Positions 1,039 to 17,336 of a stretch of DNA of 64,000 bases are shown here, piece after piece. Source of the stretch: a virus; the IMG/VR virus record IMGVR_UViG_3300050821_001265, positions 1-64,000 of that record. One strand, given 5' to 3'. Below the pieces are notes generated by a model. It was not told the DNA's origin. It worked only from the letters and a program-made list of their open reading frames with translations, and made no database searches. The position numbers and the translations under genes were made by a program. Each line of letters opens with the position of its first letter. Within the stretch, counting starts at the first letter, position 1.

Positions 1039-1728
1039 TTACGCGAACCGAATGAGCCGACGCTTATGACGGAACGCGAACGCGAGACCCACGAAGCCGA
1101 GAAGCATCATCACCCAAGTGCTCGGTTCTGGTACTGCGGGAGCCACCGGCGTAAGCGAACCGCCAGCGCCATCAATCTGCGACAGCAATACGTTCCCAGA
1201 AAGCGAAGTGAACAGATAGAAGTCAAACGGGATGCCAGGAACGAAATGCTCACTCTCATCGTTCGTCCCGCTCCCAACTACGGTCGTAAACGTCGTTAGG
1301 TTGGAGCTATTCGATCCGAGCACGATCCATTTTTCGCCAAGCGGCAAGCCAGACGGAGTTACCGAGTTCATCTGCCAGCTAAACGAGTTTGCTCCGGCGT
1401 TCACAGCATTGCTAAAGTTCACAAGGATCGCGGAACCAAACGTGATCTCATTCTCGCCTGACCTATCATTAGTCAAGCCGAGGCCAATCTCATCTGCTCC
1501 GCCATTCTTCTCGAACAAATCGGTGGCGGTGCCAAATCCTACGCCTGTCAAGCCAAACGCAGTAATGCCCAAACCGACATCACCAGTAATCGCGGAAAAG
1601 CTTTCCGACGTTCCGACGTTCGCTCCAGGAGGCGCTACACCACCCGACATATCCCAAGTCGTTTGAGCTTGCGCGGCCGTCACACCTAGCGCAATAGCAG
1701 CGCCTAGCAACAAGGTTTGTAGTTTCAT
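1039..1728 (-). CDS. Secreted PEP-CTERM domain protein
   Basis: 229 residues from ATG 1728, chosen because AAGGAG lies 7 bases upstream; an earlier in-frame ATG has no such site. The N-terminus is a classic Sec signal peptide: Lys, a hydrophobic run, then AAQAQ. The mature part is a Gly/Asn/Ser/Thr-rich beta-type domain without cysteine. The C-terminus is a textbook PEP-CTERM tripartite signal: VPEPSTW, a hydrophobic helix (MMLLGFVGLAFAF), then a basic RHKRR cluster. In bacteria such tails are processed by exosortase and direct proteins to the envelope or exopolysaccharide matrix. I see no exosortase in the window, so a host enzyme would be needed. It sits inside a phage operon between a NusG-like gene and a zinc-ribbon gene, so it is probably phage cargo expressed with the late genes. 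Confidence 0.85.
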   Translation of the reverse strand: MKLQTLLLGAAIALGVTAAQAQTTWDMSGGVAPPGANVGTSESFSAITGDVGLGITAFGLTGVGFGTATDLFEKNGGADEIGLGLTNDRSGENEITFGSAILVNFSNAVNAGANSFSWQMNSVTPSGLPLGEKWIVLGSNSSNLTTFTTVVGSGTNDESEHFVPGIPFDFYLFTSLSGNVLLSQIDGAGGSLTPVAPAVPEPSTWVMMLLGFVGLAFAFRHKRRLIRFA

Positions 1729-1844: not shown

Positions 1845-2360
1845 CTACAACGCAAGTTCTAGGTCGCTGCCTTTTATCACAACAGGCACCCATCCGCCGA
1901 GAATGTTCATCAAGACCCGTTCGCTCTCATGCGGAGCAATACCTGCGTACAAACCAGTCAAATCCTTAAAGTGCCCAGAACGGACGCGCACTTGGTCGCC
2001 TACGCGAAACCTCGGCGGCAATTCGATCTTGCCTCCGTCAGTCTCAACGGATCGGAGCGATTCAATAAAGTCCGTTGGCAATCGCGCCGGACTTTCTCCA
2101 CACAACAACAATCGCAACACCCCGATGGTACTCATGATCCGATGCCAATGCTCCGCGATAACGACAAACACATAACCACGGAACAGCGGGACTAGTCGAT
2201 TTGAATTCGTTGAAGCCGCGACCTTCGGCAGATAGACTTGAAAAGATTGGCGACGGAGATGGGTGAGTGCTTTGTCTTCACAAAGCGGATAGGTTTGTAT
2301 GACTGACCAGTATTCGTTCACCAGAACATTCCGCCGCCCAAGGAAAGTCGAAAGGAACAT
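1845..2360 (-). CDS. NusG/RfaH-family transcription antiterminator
   Basis: 171 residues from ATG 2360; a GTG at 2321 (residue 14) is an alternative start. The N-terminal NGN-like domain shows YWSVIQT, LPK and the FRGYVFV core (about residues 62-68). The C-terminal KOW-like region shows FRVGDQVRV and a closing LGGWVPVVI strand. This is the NusG/RfaH layout, whose members bind RNA polymerase and suppress pausing and termination over long operons. It is the first leftward gene after the divergent control region. A natural role is processive antitermination of the leftward operon, possibly needed to read through hairpins. That role is inferred from family and position. Confidence 0.75.
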   Translation of the reverse strand: MFLSTFLGRRNVLVNEYWSVIQTYPLCEDKALTHLRRQSFQVYLPKVAASTNSNRLVPLFRGYVFVVIAEHWHRIMSTIGVLRLLLCGESPARLPTDFIESLRSVETDGGKIELPPRFRVGDQVRVRSGHFKDLTGLYAGIAPHESERVLMNILGGWVPVVIKGSDLELAL

Positions 2361-2780
2361 CGTGACGTCTCGGCTACTATCCGATTTGCAACCGGAAGGA
2401 AAGGGGCGACTGAAATTCCAAATTCCATTTTTTAGGCAATTTCGTGAACCTCTATACGGTTTCCTTCTGTCCTATTCCTTCTCGCGCGCGCGTACTTCAC
2501 GAAAAGGGTATAAAAATGGAATTTGGAACACCTCGAAACGGTATGCCGATAACGCTCCGATCAAGAAGTTCAGTAATTGCAGCGATCAGTACAAACTTGG
2601 TATCAGCTAACGTCTTCGTTCGCCTCCGCTTTTAGAATTATCCTCCGTTTTTTTCGCGGATGGCTTCCCGAAGTCGAATTTCGGAGTAAGCTAGACCTTA
2701 GCTCTCATCTTCCTACTACATATCAGTAATTCATGTTGCCAGCGTTCTAAGTCCTACTCAAGTCTGAGGGAGGCTGTCGG
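2361..2780. promoter_or_regulatory. Divergent intergenic control region
   Basis: 420 bp between the leftward NusG-like gene and the rightward primase-helicase gene. Nothing in it looks coding. It holds the nested inverted repeats at 2416-2528. A TATAAA-like box at 2509-2514 adjoins the right arm, but no convincing -35 partner is visible. Promoters in both directions, and possibly a replication origin, are expected here from position. Confidence 0.5.
2416..2528. repeat. Nested perfect inverted repeats (17 bp outer, 9 bp inner)
   Basis: The outer arms 2416-2432 and 2512-2528 are a perfect 17-bp inverted repeat. The inner arms 2440-2448 and 2496-2504 are a perfect 9-bp inverted repeat. The spacers between outer and inner arms are exactly 7 nt on each side, and the central 47 nt is pyrimidine-rich and ends in a CG run. 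Each outer arm, read outward, contains TGGAA-TT-TGGAA. It may be a pair of operators or a cruciform-type origin element. Confidence 0.85.
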
Positions 2781-10426: not shown

Positions 10427-11235
10427 AGCTAGCCATCACGATGATATCCAATCGGCCGGAGACTGCGCATGAGCGATGGCTCGCTTCTGTCCATAAGCTC
10501 AACAAGCTTAGGGACAAAGTCGATACATCCTTCAGCTTCGTCTTTGAAGCGCCGTTTACTCAGGCGTTAGCGCTACCCTTCCAAAAACTTGGAAGGGTAA
10601 CGCTAAAGCCGAAGTCAAAAGCGCCAATCTACAACTGGTGGCCAAATCGAAATCAAGCTTGCGCTAACGCGCCGGATGCGGAATACTGGCTTATGACGGA
10701 TGATGACTTCCGCTTTGGCGGACCTACTCCGCTTGGATACGAAAGCTGGCGACGCTATTACGATGCGATCAAATATCTTGACGCTAATCCATCGTGCGGC
10801 GGCGTTTGCTGTCTGCCGTTCTTGGGAGGTTCCGCGAGCGGCTCAAAGATCATGGTAGCTCATCGCGAATTGTTTGCCCTCAGTCGCGGTCTCCTCCTCC
10901 GCAACGTCGGCAACTTCCTCTATAGCTTAAATGTCTTCAACCTCCCAGGAGCATTAGACGAACCTGCTGCGTGTTTTTCACGGATTGAGCTAGGCTACTA
11001 TTTCGCGCGGACCTTTAACACTCCGACCGTATTGCCGCCAACGCATAAGGTGCAGCCAGGCAATACTCATCCGGCTTACAACTCCGATACGATTAACACA
11101 GTCGGCATTGGTAGTGTTATTCGTAAGCGCTACAACGATCCGGACTGGGATCATAACACGCGACGCATTCCAATCGGCTGTTTAGAGATGCATTTGAAAG
11201 CATCTCCAAACAGCGTTCTAGGAAAACGACAATGA
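10423..11235 (+). CDS. Glycosyltransferase-like protein (GT-A type)
   Basis: 270 residues from ATG 10423. The N-terminal strand KLAITMISNRP opens a nucleotide-sugar-binding-like fold, and YWLMTDDDFRFGG (about residue 98) is a DxD-type metal/sugar-nucleotide motif preceded by a strand, as in GT-A glycosyltransferases. A later NTHPAYNSDT segment is of unknown role. In phages with hydroxymethylated pyrimidines such enzymes glycosylate DNA. Here the ThyX variant and phosphatase nearby make that a testable idea. A 20-of-22-bp hairpin (10563-10610) and another at 11177-11214 are embedded in the gene. Confidence 0.65.
   Translation: MKLAITMISNRPETAHERWLASVHKLNKLRDKVDTSFSFVFEAPFTQALALPFQKLGRVTLKPKSKAPIYNWWPNRNQACANAPDAEYWLMTDDDFRFGGPTPLGYESWRRYYDAIKYLDANPSCGGVCCLPFLGGSASGSKIMVAHRELFALSRGLLLRNVGNFLYSLNVFNLPGALDEPAACFSRIELGYYFARTFNTPTVLPPTHKVQPGNTHPAYNSDTINTVGIGSVIRKRYNDPDWDHNTRRIPIGCLEMHLKASPNSVLGKRQ
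10563..10610 (+). repeat. Intragenic hairpin, 20 of 22 bp
   Basis: The two arms flank a 4-nt loop (10585-10588). The core TACCCTTCCAA/TTGGAAGGGTA is perfect, with single mismatches farther out. Inside the glycosyltransferase-like gene. Confidence 0.9.
11177..11214 (+). repeat. Intragenic hairpin, 14 of 15 bp
   Basis: GCTGTTT, an A-C mismatch, then GAGATGC/GCATCTC around an 8-nt loop. Near the 3' end of the glycosyltransferase-like gene. Confidence 0.85.
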
Positions 11236-12595: not shown

Positions 12596-12810
12596 CTGAG
12601 TTTGACGCGCTCAAGGCTGCGCGCGAGATATTAGCAAGTATGATCGAGACGGAAAGCGCACTTGTACATATGGAGCGCGATCTATTAGTTGAAGTTGAAA
12701 TATCAGAGCGCCGCCTCAATCACGTTCGTAAAGTTCTTGGATTCATACGCGAGTATGCAATCGCTCCGCAGCGCGCGAAAGTCGCGGAGCTAGCGGAGGG
12801 TTCAAAATGA
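12592..12810 (+). CDS. Small coiled-coil protein
   Basis: 72 residues, ATGA-coupled to the exonuclease and the polymerase genes. A long Glu/Leu/Arg-rich helix (about 15-55) is likely coiled coil. Its place between exonuclease and polymerase suggests a bridging or accessory role; this is inferred from position only. Confidence 0.65.
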   Translation: MTEFDALKAAREILASMIETESALVHMERDLLVEVEISERRLNHVRKVLGFIREYAIAPQRAKVAELAEGSK

Positions 12811-15656
12811 TTCGCACAGGCTACAGTTTCAAGTCAGCTGTTGGGAAAATTCCAGACGTCATCTCGCGCCTTCAAGAAATAGGCTGGACAGTCGCGCCGA
12901 TAGCGGATACAGTCTCCACTTTCGGTTTCTTAGAGTGGACTAGATTGGCCGAGGCTGCAGGTCTGCGTCCAGTCTATGGAGTAGAGTTGGCGGTCTCACC
13001 TGACAAGGGGATGAAGCGTCCGGAGCTAGATTGGTGGACGTTCCTAGCGAAGACGGACCTACGGCCGCTCCACGACCTTATCGCGTTAGCTACGTCTTCG
13101 CCAGGGCGAGACGCCGCGCTGTCGTATGACGACGCGATTGATACTCCTGGTCTCTACAAGATTACTGGACCCTTGGTAAAATTGGAAGCGATTAGTCCAA
13201 TGTTAGATGTAGACACCTACATCGGGCTAAGTCCTGCAATGCCACGCTTCCTACTCCGTAGCGCGCAAGAAGGTGGGTATCAATTATGCGCTATGTCTGC
13301 TAACCGTTATCCACGGTTAGCAGACAAAGAATTTTACCGCGTAATGCTTTGGCGGAAGGCCCAGACAGCAACATTCCCGCAGCACATCTTATCGGACGAA
13401 GAGTGGCGCCGATATATGGCTGGTGTCGGTGTCGCGCCAGATTGGCTCGACAACGCCATCACAAATAGAGATAACATTCTGGCGTCTTGTAGCGCTACTC
13501 TAAAGAAGGGAACGATGCTTGTACCTGATAAGCCAATCTCGCTACGCGAGATGTGTTTATCAGGAGCACTCAAACTAGGTGTCGATCTAACCAATCACGT
13601 CTACCGTGATCGGTTAGATCGAGAACTAGCAATGATCTCATCAAAACAATTCGAGGATTATTTCTACATCGTCTCCGATATTATGCGCTACGCGCGCGAG
13701 CAAATGATCTGTGGCCCAGCCAGAGGGTCAAGCTGTGGATCGCTCGTCTGTTATCTCCTGGAGATAACAGCGATCGATCCAATCCCATTTGACCTTCTGT
13801 TCGAGCGATTTATAGATACAACGCGCTCCGACCTACCGGACATCGATGTCGATTTTAGCGACCAACGTAGACAAATGGTATTTGACTACGTTGAGCGTAA
13901 ATACGGTGAGGAGCGCGTGGCGCGTCTCGGGACCGTCGGTACATTCCAGCCGCGCCTCGCCCTCAATAGCGCCGGAACAGCGCTCAAGATACCGAAGTGG
14001 ATGGTCAATGACGTTCTCGACAACATCATTGTCCGTTCGTCCGGCGACGCGCGAGCGCTCCAGCAACTGGAAGATACGCTCAAGGACACGGACGCCGGGC
14101 GCAAACTCCTCGCCCAGCATCCGGAGATCATGGTTGCCGCGGAAATGGAGGGGCATCCCGCGAATGCGGGCCAGCACGCAGCGGGTATCGTAATGACGCA
14201 GGAGCCCGTGCTTGACTTCGTCGCGGTTAATTCCGCGACAAAGTCAGCGATGTGCGATAAGTACGATGCCGAGAGCCTCAATCTTTTGAAGATAGACGCG
14301 CTGGGATTGACACAACTTTCAATTTTTGAAAGGTGCTTGAGTCTAATCGGTCGCCCAGACGAATACGATTTCTTTAATCGTATCCCGCTGAATGATTCAG
14401 CAGCATTCGAGGTTCTCAATCGCAGACACTATGCCGGCGTTTTCCAATTCATGGGAGGCGCGCTCAAATCTTTGACTCGACAAATTAAAGTCGAGTCACT
14501 GAACGATATTATCGCGATCACAGCGCTCGCGCGTCCCGGACCGATGGTTACTGGCGGAGCTAACGAGTGGGTGCGCCGGCGCAACGGGACAGAGCCGCCA
14601 AACTACGCGCATCCGATTTTGGAACCATACCTAAAAGAGACGCTAGGCGTCGTCACGTATCAAGAACAAGTTATGCAAATTGGCCGCGAGATCGGAGACC
14701 TATCGTGGGAGCAAGTCACCGCGCTACGGAAAGCGATGAGCCGTTCGCTGGGCGAGGAGTTCTTCAATCAATATGGCGACCCATGGAAGCAAGGCGCAAT
14801 GAAGCGCGGAATGTCGAAAGAGTTAGCCGACGATTTTTGGAAGGGTCTCTGCGCTTACGGTTCGTGGTGCTTCAATAAGTCCCACGCGGTAGCCTATGGC
14901 CTCGTCTCCTATTGGTGCTGTTGGTTAAAGGCTCACCATCCAGTTGAGTTTGCTGCGGCTACGCTCGATGCGGAGAGTGATCCCATCCGTCAAATTGCTA
15001 TCCTACGCGAGTTGGAGGAGGAGGGCATCGGCTACGTTTCGATTGATAGGGAGCGGAGCAATGCTTTATGGTCACCCGTTCAAGAGGGTGACCATAAATA
15101 CTTGGTCGGTCCCCTAACAAACATAAAAGGTTTCGGTCCCGCGACTGTGGAAGAAATTCTTACGATGAGACGGCGTGGGGAATTGCTTCGTCCAGCCGTA
15201 CAAAAGCGGCTTGACGAAGCAAAAACCGAGATTGATACGTTGTGGCCGGTGCGAGATCGCATCCATCAACTTTATCCTAATTTGACGGATGCGAACATCG
15301 CGACGGAACCAACGCCAATATCAAACGTCTCCCCGGAGCCAGGATGGCCGTCTCATCTCGTTATAGGCGTGGCACAACGAATAGTTCCGCGCGACGAAAA
15401 TGAAACGGTGAAGATCGCTCAGCGGAACGGAAAGAAGATGGCGGGACCTACCGCCTACCTCAATCTGTTCCTAAGAGACGACACAGATGATATATATTGC
15501 CGGATTGGTCGCCTCGATTACGAACGGATGGGGAAGGCGATCGTGGAACGTGGTCGTCCAGGCACCTCCCTCTACGCTGTGAAGGGAACCGTCCCACCCG
15601 ACTTCCGGATGATTCGAGTAGAACGGATCAAATATCTAGGAGACCTTGAACAATGA
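12807..15656 (+). CDS. dnaE: DNA polymerase III alpha-type (C-family) replicase
   Basis: 949 residues, shorter than bacterial DnaE (about 1160). The polymerase core is clear: CGPARGSSCGSLVCYLLEIT (about 305-325), LLFERFID, and the catalytic PDIDVDF (about 346-352). Further motifs include HPANAGQHAAGIVMT, FNKSHAVAYG and the helix-hairpin-helix-like GPLTNIKGFGPATVEEI. The N-terminal PHP domain is recognisable but degenerate: the HxH of motif I reads RTGYSF and the usual DHG reads ADTVS, so it is unlikely to bind its metals. The OB and tau-binding end appears reduced. Proofreading is probably supplied by the DnaQ-like protein upstream. At least six long hairpins lie within the gene. Confidence 0.9.
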   Translation: MIRTGYSFKSAVGKIPDVISRLQEIGWTVAPIADTVSTFGFLEWTRLAEAAGLRPVYGVELAVSPDKGMKRPELDWWTFLAKTDLRPLHDLIALATSSPGRDAALSYDDAIDTPGLYKITGPLVKLEAISPMLDVDTYIGLSPAMPRFLLRSAQEGGYQLCAMSANRYPRLADKEFYRVMLWRKAQTATFPQHILSDEEWRRYMAGVGVAPDWLDNAITNRDNILASCSATLKKGTMLVPDKPISLREMCLSGALKLGVDLTNHVYRDRLDRELAMISSKQFEDYFYIVSDIMRYAREQMICGPARGSSCGSLVCYLLEITAIDPIPFDLLFERFIDTTRSDLPDIDVDFSDQRRQMVFDYVERKYGEERVARLGTVGTFQPRLALNSAGTALKIPKWMVNDVLDNIIVRSSGDARALQQLEDTLKDTDAGRKLLAQHPEIMVAAEMEGHPANAGQHAAGIVMTQEPVLDFVAVNSATKSAMCDKYDAESLNLLKIDALGLTQLSIFERCLSLIGRPDEYDFFNRIPLNDSAAFEVLNRRHYAGVFQFMGGALKSLTRQIKVESLNDIIAITALARPGPMVTGGANEWVRRRNGTEPPNYAHPILEPYLKETLGVVTYQEQVMQIGREIGDLSWEQVTALRKAMSRSLGEEFFNQYGDPWKQGAMKRGMSKELADDFWKGLCAYGSWCFNKSHAVAYGLVSYWCCWLKAHHPVEFAAATLDAESDPIRQIAILRELEEEGIGYVSIDRERSNALWSPVQEGDHKYLVGPLTNIKGFGPATVEEILTMRRRGELLRPAVQKRLDEAKTEIDTLWPVRDRIHQLYPNLTDANIATEPTPISNVSPEPGWPSHLVIGVAQRIVPRDENETVKIAQRNGKKMAGPTAYLNLFLRDDTDDIYCRIGRLDYERMGKAIVERGRPGTSLYAVKGTVPPDFRMIRVERIKYLGDLEQ
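13294..13326 (+). repeat. Intragenic hairpin, 13 bp perfect
   Basis: TGTCTGCTAACCG/CGGTTAGCAGACA around a 7-nt loop, inside the polymerase gene. Confidence 0.9.
13582..13622 (+). repeat. Intragenic hairpin, 17 of 18 bp
   Basis: TCGATCTAACC/GGTTAGATCGA, one A-C mismatch, then ATCACG/CGTGAT around a 5-nt loop, in the polymerase gene. Confidence 0.9.
13748..13770 (+). repeat. Intragenic palindrome, 11 bp arms
   Basis: CTGTTATCTCC and GGAGATAACAG separated by one base, in the polymerase gene. Confidence 0.85.
14213..14246 (+). repeat. Intragenic hairpin, 13 of 14 bp
   Basis: TGACTT, a C-A mismatch, then GTCGCGG/CCGCGAC around a 6-nt loop, in the polymerase gene. Confidence 0.85.
15065..15098 (+). 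repeat. Intragenic hairpin, 13 bp perfect
   Basis: TTTATGGTCACCC/GGGTGACCATAAA around an 8-nt loop, in the polymerase gene. Confidence 0.9.
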
Positions 15657-15800: not shown

Positions 15801-16241
15801 ATGAGCGATGGAGAATTGCGAAAGCTGTTTCGTAAACATCTTCCGCAAGTCCACTGGTCGTCTATTGAGAGCGGACTAACTGAGCCGGGAGTTCCTGATC
15901 TGAACGGCTGCTTCGATGGCGTAGACTTCTGGGTTGAGAATAAGAAGACGAACGCTTGGGCCGTACGAGTACAGCCCGACCAGATCGGTTGGCATCTACG
16001 TCATAGCAAAGACGGTGGACACACCTTCTTTGCTATCCGAAGAATGGCAAAGATCGGACCGCGCAAGGTCGCCGCTGACGATCTATACTTAGTGGCCGGA
16101 CAAAATGTTCGGTCACTAAGTGAAGACGGATTGAAGGGGACGCCAATCATCGCTTCGTTCTCCGGTGGACCGGCGCGCTGGAATTGGACTATCGTCCTTT
16201 CGATATTCAAGGGAGACTGGAATGGCGAAGTCAGAGACTAA
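15801..16241 (+). CDS. VRR-NUC / PD-(D/E)xK nuclease
   Basis: 146 residues after AAAGGA. The motif GVPDLN, then FWVENKK about 15 residues on, gives the PD...ExK active site. VRVQPDQIGWHLRH afterwards is the conserved Gln-rich helix of the VRR-NUC/Holliday-junction-resolvase-like group. It probably acts on branched replication or packaging intermediates. The hairpin 16087-16121 is in its coding region. Confidence 0.85.
   Translation: MSDGELRKLFRKHLPQVHWSSIESGLTEPGVPDLNGCFDGVDFWVENKKTNAWAVRVQPDQIGWHLRHSKDGGHTFFAIRRMAKIGPRKVAADDLYLVAGQNVRSLSEDGLKGTPIIASFSGGPARWNWTIVLSIFKGDWNGEVRD
16087..16121 (+). repeat. Intragenic hairpin, 14 bp plus two G-T pairs
   Basis: ACTTAGTG/CACTAAGT, then CCG/CGG and ACA/TGT with two G-T pairs between, and a 3-nt loop, in the nuclease gene. 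Confidence 0.8.
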
Positions 16242-16428: not shown

Positions 16429-16465
16429 CCCCGAAGCCTGCTTGAACCTCCCGAACCGCCTCCCG

Positions 16466-16486
16466 GAGCCTCCCACAGGCTCTTTT
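16466..16486 (+). terminator. Weak intrinsic terminator-like hairpin
   Basis: GAGCCT, a five-base loop, AGGCTC, then TTTT. It lies 38 bases after the upstream gene and could end or attenuate the first early transcript. The stem is short (6 bp) and the T run is only four. Confidence 0.4.
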
Positions 16487-16616
16487 CGCGCAGAAAAAAG
16501 GTCGAAAGAAGAGACCCGGAATGGACTGGGGAAATTCGCTAGTGGCCTCCGACCCTTATAAGCCTATTTTTTCGCTTTTCTTTCGATCCGCTTTCGGGGA
16601 TAATAAAGACTGGTTA

Positions 16617-16697
16617 AGCCTCCTAGTCGTCCTGGTTACGCTGAGGCTACGGAAAAAGGTGGGTCTCTCCTAGTCGCCCTGGTTGCGCCGAGGGACC
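16617..16697 (+). ncRNA. Tandem two-copy hairpin motif with compensatory changes
   Basis: Copy 1: stem 16617-16622/16643-16648 around a 20-nt loop. Copy 2: stem 16662-16669/16690-16697 around a 20-nt loop. The loops match at 17 of 20 positions, but the outer stems differ while still pairing: one pair G-C to C-G, one A-T to T-A, and one C-G to T-G. Inside each loop a 3-bp stem encloses the same 7-nt loop CCTGGTT (CGT/ACG in copy 1, CGC/GCG in copy 2), which adds a T-A to C-G change. Three compensatory pairs in two copies argue for selected RNA structure. Confidence 0.75.
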
Positions 16698-17064
16698 TAA
16701 ACGGGAAAAGTCCCGGGCTCTTTGAAACGACGGATCAGAGTTCTCGCCAGCGGGCGGAAGCCGCGCGGAAATTTACCACACCGCGCAGAGCTAGCCGCTG
16801 AGTCGAGCAAACGGACCCCACTTCTTAATCTCCGACCGGCAGACGGCAACGAGAGATTAAAAAAAGAGGCGCGCGTTTCGGCCGCAGTAGCGAGACCGAA
16901 AAGACGTAACGCGCTCCGACCGCGAGAACGAAAATCCCGACCCAACCAGCGAACAGTCGAAAGGCCGCGCGAGCGGCGCCACGCTCTCCCACATCGAACA
17001 GATCGAATAGAGAGACGGCGCTTCGCCGCGTACCCGCCGAGTAGACCGCATGGATTGCTGCTGC

Positions 17065-17087
17065 GTACGCTAGTGAGAGTAGCGTAC
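17065..17087 (+). repeat. Perfect 8-bp hairpin with flanking 6-bp stem
   Basis: GTACGCTA/TAGCGTAC around a 7-nt loop, enclosed by GCTGCT (17057-17062) and AGCAGC (17093-17098). It lies just upstream of the ribosome site of the next gene. Confidence 0.7.
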
Positions 17088-17132
17088 CTGGGAGCAGCGT
17101 GCTGCTGACTCCATAACAAAGGAGACTAGCAA

Positions 17133-17336
17133 ATGGACTTCAACTTCAAAGGGCCTGGCCTCGGAACTGAGGCTGGCGCTCGCGCGCGATTGGCTAAAGT
17201 TGCTGGCTTGACCAAGCAATCAAAGACATTCGTCGCGATACAGAATGATCGCTACTACCCGGTGGTGGTCATTAATCCCGACGATATGTGGAACGCTCGC
17301 CACATCGTTGATTGTGGCATCTTTGTACTGAACTAA
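17133..17336 (+). CDS. Small hypothetical protein
   Basis: 67 residues with AAGGAG upstream. Basic N-terminal half, hydrophobic C-terminal strands (FVAIQND, PVVVINPDD, GIFVLN). It is the first gene after the structured region. No family is recognised. Confidence 0.7.
   Translation: MDFNFKGPGLGTEAGARARLAKVAGLTKQSKTFVAIQNDRYYPVVVINPDDMWNARHIVDCGIFVLN

What the first reader, a model, noticed from the sequence alone, without database searches (positions are those of the whole stretch)
16429..17132. Gene-free 700-bp region with a tandem covarying RNA motif
In a block where genes overlap by a few bases, 700 bp lacks any credible gene. It contains two adjacent hairpins (16617-16648, 16662-16697) whose 20-nt loops match at 17 positions while the stems differ and still pair. 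Two outer pairs and one inner pair show compensatory changes (G-C to C-G, A-T to T-A, T-A to C-G), and both end in the same 7-nt loop CCTGGTT. This is evidence for selected RNA structure without a known family. Several more hairpins follow up to 17098. It could be an undescribed phage noncoding RNA, a protein-binding tandem, or an origin transcript.
Basis: seen in the sequence. Interest (0 to 1): 0.85.

Follow-up and report, generated by a model that had tools for sequence, protein, structure and literature searches.

The report
Phage boxA leader with tandem hairpins
The gene-free stretch is probably the front end of a long viral message: a signal like that of the host's ribosomal RNA genes, preceded by two conserved RNA hairpins, that lets RNA polymerase ignore stop signals, in a virus that also carries its own gene for a protein of the kind that does this.

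Summary
16429-17132 is non-coding (codon scores negative, no protein relatives), and 16617-16648 and 16662-16697 are two versions of one hairpin with the stated compensatory changes. A third copy, found in a diverged phage (L019) at the same gene position, adds covariation: 92.6% of cells paired, 4 double-change pairs, and slid controls collapse. Rfam has no match. The gap is not a one-off: ten diverged lineages of DnaE-type phages carry roughly 360-790 bp of gene-free DNA at this position behind the same nuclease gene.

The new clue lies next to the hairpins. GGCTCTTTGAAA (16716-16727) contains an exact alphaproteobacterial rrn boxA, about 20 nt after the hairpin in both window and L019. The window phage also encodes an RfaH-like NusG paralog (1845-2360, minus); such genes occur in 5 of 6 long gap-bearing lineages against 3 of 33 other long relatives.

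Best reading: a processive-antitermination control region for the second early operon, rather than a stand-alone ncRNA or an origin. Recruitment of the NusG paralog by the hairpins is inference. The promoter is weak by consensus, several relatives lack a recognisable boxA, and folding energy is unremarkable. A new variant of a known kind, testable by experiment.

The parts
16429..17132 (+). gene-free control region between early operon segments
   Evidence: no coding signal, no protein relatives; syntenic gaps in relatives
16465..16486 (+). terminator-like hairpin GGAGCCT-CCCAC-AGGCTCT with a short U-tract, probably closing the upstream operon
   Evidence: 7-bp stem, z -2.8; the tract is only 4 U, and the consensus scan did not list it
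16576..16604 (+). putative promoter: pyrimidine tract TTTTCTTTCGAT plus -10-like GATAAT (16599-16604)
   Evidence: TTTCTTTC enriched in the syntenic gaps (6 seen, 0.15 expected); not a good sigma-70 consensus match
16617..16648 (+). hairpin 1: outer stem, CTAGT/CY internal loop, CGU/ACG inner stem, 7-nt loop
16662..16697 (+). hairpin 2, second copy of the same motif with a different but pairing stem
16702..16715 (+). small hairpin CGGGA-AAAG-UCCCG directly before boxA
   Evidence: z -2.6
16717..16727 (+). boxA element GCTCTTTGAAA
   Evidence: identical to alphaproteobacterial rrn boxA; the only match with up to 1 mismatch in the window, and of GGCTCTTTGAAA in the 69-kb record
16880..16894 (+). 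GGCCGCAGTAGCGAG, resembling the core of motif B (CCGNAGTA) of related phages
   Evidence: 14-nt identity with the L003 gap; motif B enriched in gaps
17057..17098 (+). hairpin before the next ORF, similar in layout to motif C of L009/L019/L042
   Evidence: analogy only
17109..17124 (+). CTCC-N8-GGAG: possible sequestration of the Shine-Dalgarno of ORF 17133
   Evidence: fold; inference
17133..17336 (+). first ORF of the downstream early operon (67 aa, no family)
15801..16241 (+). small nuclease-like gene that marks the syntenic position
12807..15656 (+). phage DNA polymerase III alpha (DnaE)
   Evidence: phrog_405, 9e-208
1845..2360 (-). NusG-family paralog, RfaH-like; candidate antiterminator acting on this leader
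   Evidence: PF02357 2.2e-14; TIGR01955 RfaH 4.7e-23 but below the equivalog cut-off

Best explanation
The region is the transcription-control leader of the second early operon (17133 to about 34417). Transcription from upstream stops at a terminator-like hairpin. A promoter at about 16576-16604 starts a new transcript whose first ~120 nt carry two copies of a conserved hairpin and then a boxA identical to that of alphaproteobacterial rRNA leaders. Host NusB-NusE (S10) binds boxA, and the hairpins hold or recruit a further factor, most likely the phage's own RfaH-like NusG paralog. The resulting complex travels with RNA polymerase, so that Rho and internal terminators are ignored across the ~17-kb operon, as with lambda nut/N, rrn leaders, HK022 put or LoaP leaders. 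Shown: the non-coding state, the hairpin covariation, boxA identity and placement, synteny, and the presence of the NusG paralog. Inferred: promoter activity, Nus binding, hairpin-protein recognition, antitermination.
For: boxA: a PWM from 7 alphaproteobacterial rrn leaders scores window 16717 and L019 10843 at 17.3 of 18.5 bits; no background position of the gap-bearing sequences reaches that. L009 scores 12.8 (P 0.011 per gap) and L042 11.2 (P 0.028). Exact GCTCTTTGAAA lies 127 and 170 nt before the 16S match in two alphaproteobacterial genomes. GCTCTT[TC]GA is enriched in gaps, P = 1e-4. Order and spacing: -10-like to boxA is 118, 138, 132 and 116 nt in window, L019, L080 and L009, start to start; the modelled hairpin ends at 16695 with boxA at 16717 in the window, and at 10822 with boxA at 10843 in L019. 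Hairpin covariation. Syntenic gap in ten lineages. NusG paralog: window 1845-2360, and L019, L042, L004, L029; 5/6 long gap-bearing lineages against 3/33 others, Fisher P 5e-4, not corrected for relatedness. DnaE relatives in two Alphaproteobacteria MAGs. The NusG family contains specialised antiterminators of long operons, and boxA/boxB nucleate lambda-N and rrn antitermination complexes (PMC7819879).
Against: No transcript or binding data exist. Only two phages carry this hairpin, in three copies. L031, L029, L002, L003, L004 and L015 have the gap but no convincing boxA. The promoter is not a consensus sigma-70 site, and few strong + strand terminators lie in the downstream operon. The nusG gene is 14 kb away, and L080 (44.6-kb contig, possibly incomplete) lacks one. 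Folding energies do not stand out from coding DNA, and hairpin 1 is not in the 121-nt MFE. About 400 nt after boxA remain unexplained.
Confidence: 0.56

Rival explanations
1. A stand-alone structured non-coding RNA of about 500 nt (16607 to ~17120), abundant and acting in trans, like the large phage-associated RNAs GOLLD and ROOL.
For: Long gene-free stretches at the same place in ten lineages; own promoter-like element; further recurring hairpins (motif B and motif C) in relatives.
Against: No Rfam match in the region and none in the relatives' gaps. Motifs are swapped between lineages rather than one conserved fold. The region runs straight into a Shine-Dalgarno and ORF with no terminator. 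Energies are ordinary. boxA suits an operon leader.
Confidence: 0.17
2. A cis-regulatory 5' leader that controls translation or processing of the first downstream ORFs (riboswitch-like or protein-bound), with boxA incidental.
For: Motif C before non-homologous ORFs in L009, L019 and L042 has a 9-bp stem, a covarying inner stem and an alternative pairing GGAGC:GCTCC; window 17109-17124 could mask the SD.
Against: The tandem hairpins lie 435-515 nt from the start codon; downstream ORFs differ between phages, so there is no common target; boxA is too exact and too well placed to be incidental.
Confidence: 0.15
3. A replication origin or origin transcript, with the tandem repeats as iteron-like binding sites.
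For: Close to the DNA polymerase gene; tandem repeat 47 bp apart; A-rich strand bias (AT skew up to 0.43).
Against: Compensatory stem changes argue for RNA or hairpin structure, not duplex DNA sites; no clear GC-skew switch; only two repeats, and one in L019; boxA unexplained.
Confidence: 0.07
4. A chance tandem duplication in a leftover intergenic region, without function.
For: Energy z-scores ordinary; found in few phages.
Against: Third copy at the syntenic site of a phage with 56% DnaE identity, same distance to boxA, covariation.
Confidence: 0.05

Closest known systems
Lambda nut sites with N protein (boxA + boxB)
   Same: Leader RNA with boxA and a hairpin near an early promoter of a phage; Nus factors expected to assemble (PMC7819879).
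   Different: Two larger two-helix hairpins lie upstream of boxA, not a small boxB downstream; no N-like protein identified; a NusG paralog instead.
Bacterial rrn leader antitermination (boxB-boxA, Nus factors, SuhB)
   Same: boxA sequence identical to alphaproteobacterial rrn boxA; hairpins upstream of boxA.
   Different: Sits ahead of protein genes of a phage; the hairpin was not found in the 16S loci searched.
HK022 putRNA
   Same: Two consecutive stem-loops of about 70-80 nt in a phage early leader (PMC9378689).
   Different: put acts alone; here two copies of one motif, then boxA; no sequence similarity claimed or tested.
LoaP and its leader hairpin
   Same: NusG paralog plus a small RNA hairpin in a leader ahead of a long operon (PMC12691694).
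   Different: Phage protein is closer to RfaH than to LoaP; the hairpin is not a UNCG type; boxA present.
RfaH and ops
   Same: Phage protein best matches TIGR01955; motif B core CCGNAGTA of relatives resembles ops GGCGGTAG (PMC5995543).
   Different: Below the RfaH cut-off; key ops base G4 is C; the window has only GGCCGCAG.

Membership tests
boxA-dependent (nut/rrn-type) antitermination leader | boxA matching the host rrn type in the transcript leader | tested here: met
   window 16717-16727 and L019 10843 identical to rrn boxA of alphaproteobacteria; the host itself is inferred
boxA-dependent (nut/rrn-type) antitermination leader | hairpin element (boxB or equivalent) near boxA, conserved with it | tested here: met
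   same covarying hairpin about 20 nt upstream in two phages
boxA-dependent (nut/rrn-type) antitermination leader | located just after a promoter of a long operon | tested here: inconclusive
   -10-like site 116-138 nt before boxA in four phages, but weak consensus
boxA-dependent (nut/rrn-type) antitermination leader | NusB/NusE binding and terminator read-through | not testable with these tools
   needs experiment
HK022 put RNA | two stem-loops acting directly on RNA polymerase without phage protein | not testable with these tools
   tandem stem-loops present; protein independence unknown
RfaH (TIGR01955) | score above the equivalog cut-off | tested here: not met
   81.9 bits against 144.5
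NusG superfamily (PF02357 NGN domain) | NGN domain above the gathering score | tested here: met
   54.2 bits against 22.2; KOW weak (16.8 against 22.3)
Any Rfam family, including large phage RNAs | match at gathering score | tested here: not met
   none in the region

The most novel reading that the evidence does not exclude
A previously undescribed phage antitermination system: a phage-encoded RfaH-like NusG paralog recruited by a lineage-specific leader hairpin (tandem CTAGTCGY...RCGCYG hairpins here, GAAY-GCC-loop-GGC-CGUAGUA hairpins in relatives) together with host NusB-NusE on an rrn-type boxA, in an exchangeable control cassette downstream of the phage DNA polymerase and nuclease genes.
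Probability: 0.33. Interest if true: 0.76.

Novelty: new variant of a known kind. Interest (0 to 1): 0.6.

Why it matters
If right, uncultured phages of apparently alphaproteobacterial hosts carry a hybrid of three textbook antitermination systems: a boxA like that of host ribosomal leaders, a put/boxB-like tandem hairpin, and an RfaH/LoaP-like NusG paralog. It would give a concrete RNA target for phage NusG paralogs and show how an antitermination cassette is exchanged among phages at one genomic position. It is directly testable with reporter fusions.

Tried and rejected
Rfam at gathering and relaxed thresholds: nothing credible in the region. blastn of the region in the phage collection: nothing. 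Flanking ORFs 16222 and 17350 as queries: only the identical contig. IMG/VR pattern for motif B: 6 contigs, 5 of them in syntenic gaps; L089 is coding DNA of another phage. IMG/VR pattern hairpin + boxA: window phage, L019, and L280, a chance hit in a structural region. Covariance-model hit in G096 (21 bits): coding, rejected. L104 and L120 'gaps': contain ORFs, rejected. Folding energy as evidence: coding controls are as good or better. Hammerhead idea from CTGATGAG in the gaps: Rfam places type II hammerheads between other genes of L002 and L015, not in the gaps. ops identity for motif B: only a resemblance. The L179 MAG flank showed no comparable leader on inspection. The nuclease alignment of 14 sequences was too diverse to search with.

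Full report
SETTING. The window is 64 kb of a 69,110-bp virus record. Early genes run + from 2781 to 34417, late structural genes run - from 34630 to 63888, with a tail sheath and a ClpP-type head protease/capsid protein. The only other copy in IMG/VR of the flanking genes is a 50.6-kb contig, identical over the region (L001). No isolate phage has DNA similar to the region; DnaE has only <60% identical relatives among isolate phages. Two DnaE relatives (47% and 51%) lie in MAGs labelled Alphaproteobacteria, which with the boxA type suggests such a host.

THE OBSERVATION. 16429-17132 has no coding signal: the three open frames score negative codon log-odds while flanking ORFs score positive, and none has a tblastn relative. 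The direct repeat of 27 nt (24 identical, 47 bp apart) is real. Both copies fold alone with the outer stem, the 7-nt loop and the CGY/RCG inner stem; the layout is outer stem - CTAGT - CGY - 7-nt loop - RCG - CY - outer stem. Stem differences between the copies are compensatory exactly as stated.

A THIRD COPY AND COVARIATION. In L019 (56% DnaE identity) the same motif lies at 10792-10822 in the gene-free stretch behind the same nuclease gene. On the three copies 92.6% of cells pair, four pairs change on both sides, 3 of 500 shuffles reach this, and slid structures lose it. A covariance model gives 48, 46 and 41 bits for these three and nothing credible elsewhere among about 0.7 Mb of related phage and rrn-locus DNA (the G096 hit is coding). 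Three sequences are few, and the model was built from them. Folding energy adds nothing.

SYNTENY. Among DnaE-type relatives with the nuclease gene, eleven sequences (ten lineages, since L029 and L031 are 83% alike; L020 is identical to L042) have roughly 360-790 bp of gene-free DNA at this position: window, L002, L003, L004, L009, L015, L019, L029, L031, L042, L080. In most it follows the nuclease gene directly; in window and L029 one small ORF lies between. Others (L006, L013, L017, L076, L079) have none. An unbiased k-mer test over the gaps finds CCGTAGTAG, TTTCTTTC, GGGCTCTTT, ATACCGCTC and AGGATTGTT enriched. These correspond to a second hairpin (motif B: GAAY-GCC-loop-GGC-CGUAGUA; 5 in 7.5 kb of gap against 16 in 940 kb), a promoter-proximal pyrimidine tract, boxA, and a 3' hairpin with covarying stems before the next ORF (motif C). 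The gaps share an architecture but exchange elements.

BOXA. GGCTCTTTGAAA at 16716-16727 follows the modelled end of hairpin 2 (16695) by about 20 nt; in L019 the same 12-mer follows its hairpin (end 10822, boxA core 10843) at the same distance. To test whether this is boxA, 16S genes of Alphaproteobacteria were located with RF00177 and up to 500 nt upstream were read: GCTCTTTGAAATCG, GCTCTTTGAAAACC, GCTCTTTGACA (twice), GCTGTTTGACATTG and variants were found in 8 of the 16 upstream stretches examined. A PWM from seven of these ranks window and L019 above every background position of the gap-bearing sequences; L009 (GCTGTTTGATATTG) and L042 are plausible, L080 weak, the rest negative. The gammaproteobacterial consensus is GYTCTTTAANA (PMC5725501), so the phage form is of the alphaproteobacterial type. 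It is the only match with up to one mismatch in the 69-kb record. A single 11-mer hit with one mismatch is expected by chance in a window of this size; the weight lies on its exactness, its place in the gap and its fixed distance to the hairpin in two phages.

A PHAGE NUSG PARALOG. 1845-2360 (-), divergent from the first early operon, encodes a 171-aa protein with a NusG NGN domain, closest to RfaH by NCBIfam but below its cut-off, with solved NusG and RfaH as the nearest structures. Related genes occur in the records of L019, L042, L004 and L029. Counting records of at least 27 kb, 5 of 6 gap-bearing lineages and 3 of 33 other DnaE or nuclease relatives have one (Fisher P 5e-4). Lineages are not independent, the gap was not judged separately in every other record, and many records are fragments, so this is suggestive. 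Specialised NusG paralogs are antiterminators of long operons (PMC7819879); LoaP uses a leader RNA hairpin (PMC12691694) and RfaH a hairpin in non-template DNA at ops (PMC5995543).

MECHANISM. Terminator-like hairpin 16465-16486; promoter-like site to 16604; hairpins 16617-16648 and 16662-16697; small hairpin 16702-16715; boxA 16717-16727; ~400 nt of further leader; SD and ORF 17133. This order matches a processive-antitermination leader, with tandem hairpins as the phage-specific part and boxA as the host part. What binds the hairpins is not shown; the NusG paralog is the best candidate. Why 400 nt follow boxA, and why several lineages have the gap without a recognisable boxA, is open; they may use other loading elements such as motif B.

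VERDICT. The finding is real and not in Rfam. It is most likely a cis-acting leader rather than a free ncRNA. It works like nut, rrn or put leaders; membership in any one is not established because the functional criteria cannot be tested here.

Noticed in passing
L002 10049-14234 (seven sites); L015 6179-6245: Seven type II hammerhead ribozymes between successive genes of one phage contig (L002), and one in L015: an array that may process the early transcript.
   Followed up: no
L031 5961-5996, L029 6721-6754, L042 10714-10748 and 10804-10840, L004 9562-9730: Motif B: hairpin GAAY-GCC-loop-GGC-CGUAGUA, several copies in one gap of L004; the GAA/AGUA internal loop looks like a G-bulge (sarcin-ricin) motif; core resembles RfaH ops.
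   Followed up: partly
L009 8784-8843, L019 11058-11115, L042 10843-10902: Motif C: strongly conserved 3' leader hairpin with covarying inner stem and mutually exclusive GGAGC:GCTCC pairing, before non-homologous ORFs; possible translational switch.
   Followed up: partly
window 1845-2360 (-): Phage-encoded RfaH-like NusG paralog divergent from the first early operon; NusG-family genes in about ten DnaE-type phage records.
   Followed up: yes
window 1039-1728 (-): Protein with a C-terminal PEP-CTERM sorting motif in a phage genome.
   Followed up: no
window 2361-2780: 420-bp divergent intergenic region between nusG and the first early operon; no boxA there.
   Followed up: no
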